Assembly: GCA_022496185.1 (NCBI GenBank)
Contig: WTXG01000001.1
Span: forward strand, 372,001-436,000
Direction of reading: 5' to 3'
Length of the DNA stretch: 64,000 nt
From: Multifurca ochricompacta
Lineage: Eukaryota; Basidiomycota; Agaricomycetes; Russulales; Russulaceae
Positions 50,355 to 51,270 of the stretch are shown here, piece after piece. The notes beneath the pieces were generated by a model. It saw only the letters and a program-made list of their open reading frames with translations, searched no databases and was not told the DNA's origin. Position 1 is the first letter of the stretch; each line of letters begins with the position of its first letter. The position numbers and the translations under genes were made by a program.

Positions 50355-51270
50355 CTACATGATAATACATCTCGGCCTTCTCGGCTCCTTGACTCGTGGT
50401 GTGGCTGCTGCGCCTTGCTCTGCTAGCTTCGTGCTTCGAAGGTTGCGTACGAGGCTCGTAAAAAGTCGTTCCACGTTCTGGGCTGTCTTTGCACTGGTTT
50501 CGAGGAACTCGCAGCCAAACTCCTTGGCCAGTTGCACTCCTTCTTCTCGGGTGACTTCACGCTCCAGTTGTTTATCAGCCTTGTTCCCAACGAGCATGAA
50601 TATAGGCTTTTGGCGCTTGACCCTCAACATAGACTGCCGGAAGACGTCCAGACGTTCGAATGTTGCTCGTGATGCAATTGAATACACAAGGATGAACCCT
50701 TGTCCTTCACTACAAGGGTACCCATTTAAAGTGAGATCCGCAAAACAAAAAGAGGGTTCGAATAGACCCACCGAACCCACTGATCGCGTAATGTTGCATA
50801 CTCCTCTGAGTATTCATAATAAGCATGACAAACCGAGATTAATATCATTGAGAGAAATTGACTCACCTTGGCCCGCCGTGTCAATCACTTCTACAAAGCA
50901 CATTCGGTTGTCAACGACAAGTTGCTTTCGATATGCATCTTCTATCGTCGGATCGTAGGTCTATACAGGGAGGGGGGAAGAGATATGTAGTGAAAAGATG
51001 GATTATAAGACAAAAGAGCATTACCTCTAGGTAGTAGTGGCGCCATAGGATCAGCAGACGCTCAGGTAGAAAGCGAGTAAGCCTATGATGGGACTTACCA
51101 ACGAAGCAGTTTAGAGTGAACTAGAGGATTCCATGTCACAAAGGAGAGATGAAGGCACGAGGGACACCGCGGGAGGAGGGGGGGGGTAGGAGGAGTGAAC
51201 GTACCTGTACCGCCAGGGCTGTCTTTCCGACGCCTCCATCCCCCAGTACTGCTACCCGCCAACTGTCCAT
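50355..51270 (-). CDS. RAS: Ras-family small GTPase with CAAX box
   Basis: Exons 51270..51205, 51120..51099 (22 nt), 51026..51025 (2 nt), 50960..50867, 50805..50772, 50709..50355; total 573 nt, 190 aa, in frame only if the 2-nt exon is included. The protein starts MDSWRVAVLGDGGVGKTALA (P-loop GDGGVGKT), switch I is FVETYDPTIEDAYR, switch II is DTAGQEEYATLRDQW, then LVGNKADK (NKxD) and ETSAK. The tail is RRPRCIIM, a CAAX motif for prenylation. Such GTPases relay growth and mating signals at the plasma membrane. The P-loop Gly and switch II Gln are wild type. The 2-nt exon (AG) completes the Glu codon of switch I. Strongly Ras-like; exact ras1/ras2 orthology not assigned. Confidence 0.94.
51025..51026 (-). 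other. RAS: Candidate 2-nt exon of the Ras gene
   Basis: On the minus strand: acceptor CTAG, exon AG, donor GTAATG. The flanking introns are 72 nt (51027..51098) and 64 nt (50961..51024), the local norm. The exon joins GTT-G upstream and ACC-TAC downstream to give Val-Glu-Thr-Tyr, the standard switch I text. Without it the frame is lost. Confidence 0.75.

What the first reader, a model, noticed from the sequence alone, without database searches (positions are those of the whole stretch)
51025..51026. Two-nucleotide exon in a Ras gene, inside switch I
Seen: the Ras coding sequence is in frame (573 nt) only if the dinucleotide AG at 51026-51025 is kept as an exon between acceptor CTAG and donor GTAATG. 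The two introns are 72 and 64 nt, normal here, while a single merged intron would be 138 nt and would destroy the frame. The dinucleotide completes the Glu codon of the invariant Val-Glu-Thr-Tyr in switch I. Inference: either exon definition is bypassed by strict intron definition, or splicing is stepwise (recursive), with the AG left behind. Such tiny exons are rarely annotated because most gene callers forbid them.
Basis: partly seen in the sequence, partly recalled or inferred. Interest (0 to 1): 0.8.

Follow-up and report, generated by a model that had tools for sequence, protein, structure and literature searches.

The report
Two-nucleotide exon in mushroom Ras gene
A Ras signalling gene of a mushroom carries an exon only two letters long that completes one amino-acid codon; related mushrooms probably share a tiny exon at this spot, because a number of their database Ras proteins lack two residues exactly there.

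Summary
Six minus-strand exons (66, 22, 2, 94, 34, 355 nt) give a 573-nt CDS and a 190-aa Ras, but only if AG at 51026-51025 is an exon between 72- and 64-nt GT-AG introns. Of 1417 two-intron chains only this one gives the conserved peptide. No canonical single intron does; the sole single removal giving it has GT...AT ends. The deposited Multifurca ochricompacta Ras is identical, so the exon is presumably already modelled there (model not seen).

New evidence: among 189 listed homologues, 49 lack exactly Val29-Glu30 and 4 are otherwise deformed there. All 53 are among the 84 database-named entries; 0 of 105 unnamed (jgi/lgn/ena, probably cDNA-derived) entries are deformed. The 49 come from at least 11 Agaricomycete orders. 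Suillus subaureus and S. placidus differ by VE and one other residue. This is the scar expected when gene callers refuse a tiny exon and use the GT of the Val codon as donor. So a microexon here is probably ancestral to Agaricomycetes. Mechanism (inferred): intron definition, sequential removal. Kind: ultra-short microexon, as in plant APC11. No RNA of this species or DNA of relatives was seen.

The parts
51205..51270 (-). exon 1, 66 nt, start codon and P-loop (MDSWRVAVLGDGGVGKTALAVQ)
51121..51204 (-). intron 1, 84 nt, GTACGT...TCTAG
51099..51120 (-). exon 2, 22 nt, FTLNCFV plus first base (G) of the Glu30 codon
51027..51098 (-). intron 2, 72 nt, GTAAGT...CCTAG, branch-point-like CTGAT with its A 25 nt from the 3' end as counted; open in frame if retained (gives 214 aa)
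51025..51026 (-). exon 3, two nucleotides (AG), completes GAG = Glu30 of switch I
   Evidence: deposited protein identical
50961..51024 (-). intron 3, 64 nt, GTAATG...TATAG
50867..50960 (-). exon 4, 94 nt, TYDPTIED...DTAGQ
50806..50866 (-). intron 4, 61 nt, GTGAGT...CTCAG
50772..50805 (-). exon 5, 34 nt
50710..50771 (-). intron 5, 62 nt, GTGGGT...TGTAG
50355..50709 (-). exon 6, 355 nt, to the CIIM C-terminus and stop

Best explanation
AG at 51026-51025 is a genuine, constitutively included two-nucleotide exon of a Ras gene in Multifurca ochricompacta, or a genome very near it. It completes the Glu30 codon of switch I. The two small introns on either side are each recognised across the intron (intron definition) and removed one after the other. 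Simultaneous recognition is unlikely, because the AG is at once the landing point of the intron 2 acceptor and the last two exonic bases that would pair with U1 at the intron 3 donor (AG|GTAATG). Most likely intron 2 (donor GTAAGT, transcribed first) goes first, leaving ...GTTGAG|GTAATG for the second step. The first AG of CTAGAG must be chosen over the second, which would leave a zero-length exon and a frameshift. A microexon at this position is probably ancestral to Agaricomycetes. Shown: the sequence, uniqueness of the solution among the chains enumerated, identity with the deposited protein, and the annotation scar in relatives. Inferred: splicing in vivo, constitutive inclusion, the order of removal, and that relatives have exactly two nucleotides.
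For: Enumeration between exon 2 and exon 4: 1 of 1417 two-intron chains (281 open in frame) gives the conserved peptide, and none of the 69 open in-frame single-intron chains gives it. Pfam Ras, 174.6 bits. Deposited Multifurca protein identical, on a contig of the same length, 2,313,629 bases, as G000 contig C1. Deformation at this site in 53 of 84 named entries and 0 of 105 unnamed, Fisher p = 2.9e-25. At least eleven orders, one species looked up for each. Congeners almost alike but for VE: Suillus subaureus/placidus 193/194, Schizophyllum amplum/commune H4-8 185/189. A GT at the Val codon (GTTGGT, 142-nt intron) gives exactly the dVE protein here. In Pyrrhoderma noxium the annotated VE-VR-TY is what reading on from the microexon into a GTN-CGN or GTN-AGR donor region would give. 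Twelve of twelve close unnamed homologues examined (P0002-P0007, P0009-P0014) have VETYDPT.
Against: No cDNA of this species was seen. DNA of the relatives was not seen (a scan of viral contigs gave nothing; metagenome scans are capped at 0 and were not tried), so a 2-nt size there is not shown; a 6-nt GTNGAR exon would leave the same scar. That the unnamed entries come from cDNA is inference. The intron 3 donor GTAATG lacks the usual G at +5 (recalled consensus). A splice-site model of the genome could not be built. Chains of three or more introns in this stretch were not enumerated.
Confidence: 0.92

Rival explanations
1. One non-canonical 136-nt intron (51098-50963) with GT...AT ends leaves the AG that precedes ACC; no microexon exists.
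For: It is the only single contiguous removal (20 nt or more, any termini) that gives the exact peptide, and it gives the same cDNA.
Against: GT-AT ends are not an established intron class (recalled). It leaves the internal CTAG|AG|GTAA as coincidence. Pyrrhoderma's VEVRTY places codons between Glu and Thr, which this reading does not predict.
Confidence: 0.03
2. A single 142-nt intron with donor GTTGGT is real, and the protein truly lacks Val29-Glu30, as annotated in 49 relatives.
For: In frame (188 aa); 49 database-named entries have this form.
Against: 0 of 105 unnamed entries have it, although two of the three queries favoured it; congeners nearly identical elsewhere have VE; it cuts switch I; the deposited protein of this species has VE.
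Confidence: 0.02
3. Assembly or base error: the real genome has GAG next to a flank and one ordinary intron.
For: Two missing bases would mimic a 2-nt exon.
Against: The same site is deformed in database proteins from at least 11 orders; canonical splice ends surround the AG.
Confidence: 0.01
4. This concerns the relatives only and does not compete with the reading for this gene: they have a microexon of another size (e.g. 6 nt, Val-Glu), and only Multifurca or Russulales has two nucleotides.
For: Skipping a 6-nt exon would also give dVE.
Against: Intron positions are usually conserved within a class (general knowledge). Jaapia and Sphaerobolus annotations keep Val and change only the next residue to Gly, as a two-base extension of exon 2 would do, although another reading is possible.
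Confidence: 0.2
5. Retention of intron 2 (72 nt, open in frame) is a regulated alternative giving a 214-aa Ras with 24 residues inserted in switch I.
For: The retained product is open and full-length.
Against: An open frame of this length may well be chance (not computed in a call); no such form is among the 189 listed homologues (classes; lists capped at 120 per search).
Confidence: 0.05

Closest known systems
Single-nucleotide exon of Arabidopsis APC11 (PMC4674806; parts 1 and 2 of 3 of the text read)
   Same: Nuclear, constitutive exon below 3 nt, needed for the frame, flanked by AG and GT, missed by annotation; the authors favour intron definition combined with stepwise removal.
   Different: 1 nt in a plant and proven by mutation and cDNA; here 2 nt in a fungal Ras gene, no RNA test.
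Plant microexons up to 15 nt (PMC8831610; start of abstract in the listing and 12 passages seen)
   Same: Conserved and often misannotated; 1-nt examples in APC11 and VPS55.
   Different: Plants, with RNA-seq support; the word beginning 'fung' occurs 0 times in its main text.
Fungal microexons: Phanerochaete P450 genes (PMC1184071) and Trichoderma Xlr2 (PMC11121469); for both, passages and start of abstract seen
   Same: Small exons in fungal genes.
   Different: Shortest given in the passages seen: 6 bp and 20 nt; Xlr2 is regulated by glucose, this one is read as constitutive.
Stwintrons (PMC5639578; 12 passages seen)
   Same: Small fungal introns removed in consecutive steps by intron definition.
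   Different: There an internal intron splits a splice element of an external one and nothing stays behind; here two complete introns leave two coding bases.

Membership tests
Ultra-short constitutive microexon (APC11 type) | Genomic bases flanked by an acceptor AG and a donor GT | tested here: met
   CTAG|AG|GTAATG
Ultra-short constitutive microexon (APC11 type) | Required for the conserved reading frame | tested here: met
   Skipping gives 45 aa; only canonical solution among the chains enumerated
Ultra-short constitutive microexon (APC11 type) | Mature mRNA carries the bases | tested here: inconclusive
   Deposited protein and 105 of 105 unnamed homologues have Val-Glu, but no cDNA of this species was seen
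Ultra-short constitutive microexon (APC11 type) | A changed base in the exon appears in the cDNA | not testable with these tools
   Needs a minigene experiment
Ultra-short constitutive microexon (APC11 type) | Conserved among relatives | tested here: inconclusive
   Annotation scar at this site in 53 of 84 named entries, 49 of them dVE from at least 11 orders; relatives' DNA not seen
Stwintron | Internal intron interrupts a splice element of an external GT-AG intron and the whole tract is removed | tested here: not met
   Removing the whole tract to the acceptor shifts the frame; the only single removal giving the peptide ends in AT
Recursive splicing through a zero-length exon | AG|GT junction regenerates a donor and leaves no bases | tested here: not met
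   Use of the second AG leaves no bases and gives a 45-aa truncated product
Ras family GTPase | Ras domain with P-loop, switch I, DTAG, NKxD and a CaaX end | tested here: met
   PF00071, 174.6 bits; motifs read in the product, CIIM end; motif names recalled

The most novel reading that the evidence does not exclude
A constitutive two-nucleotide exon inside switch I of one Ras paralogue is ancestral to Agaricomycetes and has been kept in many orders. Its two bases serve both as codon and as U1-pairing exon end, and gene callers that forbid it have deposited Ras proteins without Val29-Glu30 for many mushrooms.
Probability: 0.7. Interest if true: 0.72.

Novelty: new member of a known kind. Interest (0 to 1): 0.6.

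Why it matters
A two-nucleotide exon can hardly be recognised by exon definition, so a conserved one is a clean natural test of intron definition and of the order of splicing in fungi. If the reading is right, a central signalling protein is wrong in switch I in the 49 database entries that lack Val-Glu, which matters for models, alignments and expression constructs. The dVE scar suggests a cheap way to find other missed tiny exons: an in-frame loss that begins at a GT-starting codon, seen in annotated genomes but not in transcript-type sequences.

Tried and rejected
Rejected: single canonical introns, stwintron and zero-length recursive site; biological loss of VE; assembly error. Two attempts to derive the genome's splice consensus without proteins failed: unconstrained donors looked like background, and false donors (GA or GC, two dinucleotides against one) gave more 'introns' than GT in two of three settings (128 v 103, 67 v 46, 1 v 2). 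No claim on splice-site strength rests on them. Viral contigs: 9 pattern matches, none a relative. Genome-contig scans, structure prediction and fold search were not used. Paralogues: the two Ras genes on C323 read through this codon and have an interruption after Glu37; the Ras-like gene on C1 (L010) was not resolved in this region, so nothing is claimed for it. Literature: ten searches were made. Seven used words for microexons, tiny exons or mushroom ras genes, of which one search was too loose to be useful (1,025,085 papers, 5 listed) and one search listed 15 of 658; one search used names of mushroom ras genes, stwintrons, another the species. None listed a report of a two-nucleotide exon in a fungal gene. 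The library lacks most subscription papers; early papers on mushroom ras genes (recalled, not seen) might show gene structures. PMC8146680, PMC3990503 and PMC8022950 were searched for passages only and held nothing on this exon.

Full report
What is there. On the minus strand the gene reads ATG (51270) to stop (50355) through six exons of 66, 22, 2, 94, 34 and 355 nt and introns of 84, 72, 64, 61 and 62 nt. The product is a 190-aa Ras (PF00071, 174.6 bits) with P-loop, DTAGQ, NKAD and a CIIM end. The species name rests on that match; the deposited gene model was not seen. In the alignment to Rap2A the residue in question lies opposite the Glu of FIEKYDPTIED; that this is switch I is recalled knowledge.

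Is the AG needed? I enumerated splice paths between the start of exon 2 and the end of exon 4. Of 1417 two-intron chains (GT or GC donors, AG acceptors, each at least 30 nt), 281 are open and in frame, and one gives the conserved peptide: the proposed one. Of 69 open in-frame single-intron chains (GT-AG, GC-AG, AT-AC) none does. The nearest are a 142-nt intron from the GT of the Val codon, which drops Val-Glu, and retention of intron 2, which keeps all conserved residues but inserts 24. Allowing any intron ends, one single removal gives the exact peptide: 136 nt with ends GT...AT. Chains of three or more introns were not tried. Chance arrangement: [CT]AGA[AG]GT with 45 nt to spare on both sides occurs in 1.15% of 200,000 random 138-nt stretches, and [CT]AGAGGTAA 3 times in both strands of 264 kb, this site included.

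The scar in relatives. The first homologue search listed 120 of 1409 hits. Of the 38 of these with a named database source (ids in the script), 6 lack exactly Val29-Glu30, all six from genera that I place in Russulales (Heterobasidion confirmed, the rest recalled), and 3 more are deformed at or around this place (in Hericium alpestre the deformity covers all of residues 23-30). I then searched with a query lacking the two residues (120 listed each, of 2170 and 1024). Over the 189 distinct proteins listed in the three searches, 136 have VE, 49 lack it and 4 are otherwise altered. By source, the 53 abnormal ones are all among the 84 named entries; the 105 entries from jgi, lgn or ena sources alone are all normal (Fisher p = 2.9e-25). 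The other 31 named entries have VE, and 10 of those also have jgi or lgn members. The last two queries were chosen to favour the deletion, so 49 of 84 is not a prevalence; that choice should have brought up unnamed deletion forms too, and none was listed. The unnamed entries sit on contigs whose longest listed sizes run from about 0.9 to 7.9 kb, yet nearly all hold an uninterrupted full-length Ras (P0156 has 112 aa), so I take them for cDNA-derived; this is inference, not a label. One named abnormal entry (Fistulina, P0142) has a 1341-base contig.

Same genus, same protein, two annotations. Suillus subaureus and S. placidus agree at 193 of 194 aligned residues apart from the missing VE; Schizophyllum amplum and S. 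commune H4-8 at 185 of 189; Boletus coccyginus and B. edulis at 188 of 192. Paxillus, Phanerochaete, Trametes and Thelephora show the same contrast with more differences or further small gaps; Pholiota does too, but its model is deformed elsewhere as well. Species with the deletion fall in at least eleven orders, one species looked up for each: Hysterangiales, Sistotremastrales, Hymenochaetales, Corticiales, Gloeophyllales, Atheliales, Thelephorales, Polyporales, Boletales, Agaricales and Russulales (Multifurca itself is in Russulales). My inference: an ordinary single intron at this place would not make gene callers drop two conserved codons in so many species, whereas a tiny exon that they cannot place would, because any Val codon begins with GT and offers the in-frame escape. 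Pyrrhoderma's VE-VR-TY fits reading on from the microexon into a donor (GTN then CGN or AGR); the two VG forms (Jaapia, Sphaerobolus) fit a two-base extension of exon 2, though less specifically.

Limits. I saw no DNA of the relatives, so their exon size is inferred; a 6-nt Val-Glu exon would leave the same mark. No RNA of Multifurca was seen.

Paralogues. Two neighbouring Ras genes on contig C323 (L009) have FVDEYDPTIE and FVEEYDPTME in one piece; the alignment is interrupted after Glu37 instead. Of the three Ras genes compared, only the one in the window has the microexon; a further Ras-like gene on C1 (L010) could not be judged in this region.

Mechanism. Small introns, a 22-nt exon and a 2-nt exon in a row leave little room for recognition across the exon. 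The two introns are complete and can be removed one after the other. The AG has three roles: codon, first bases after the intron 2 acceptor, and last exonic bases before the intron 3 donor. Errors are mostly destructive: skipping, or use of the second AG, gives 45 aa; intron 3 retention gives 67 aa; intron 2 retention is open and gives 214 aa. The order of removal is inferred; in potato invertase the second intron around a 9-nt exon goes first, as reported in PMC4674806.

Known kinds. Arabidopsis APC11 has a 1-nt exon proven by mutation and cDNA (PMC4674806, parts 1 and 2 of 3 read), and 1-nt exons in APC11 and VPS55 are conserved and misannotated in plants (PMC8831610, passages). In fungi the passages I saw report exons down to 6 bp in Phanerochaete P450 genes (PMC1184071) and a 20-nt regulated exon in Trichoderma (PMC11121469). 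I therefore file this as a new fungal member of a known kind. Ten literature searches listed no earlier report (see Tried and rejected for what they covered), in a library without most subscription journals.

Noticed in passing
51027-51098: Intron 2 is 72 nt and open in frame; its retention would give a 214-aa Ras with 24 residues inserted in switch I.
   Followed up: partly
L009 (G000:C323:53500-58500): Two further Ras genes lie next to each other, both without the switch I microexon and with an interruption after Glu37.
   Followed up: partly
P0027, P0164, P0118, P0064: Other annotation deformities at or around the same codon: VG in Jaapia and Sphaerobolus, VEVR in Pyrrhoderma, and a garbled exon 2 in Hericium alpestre.
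   Followed up: partly
51273-51280: An acceptor-like CTTTCTAG on the minus strand ends two bases before the start codon, after a long pyrimidine-rich stretch: a 5' UTR intron is possible.
   Followed up: no
55559-55954: A minus-strand open frame contains CCKCGTILGWKY, which resembles the Yippee domain (recalled, not searched).
   Followed up: no
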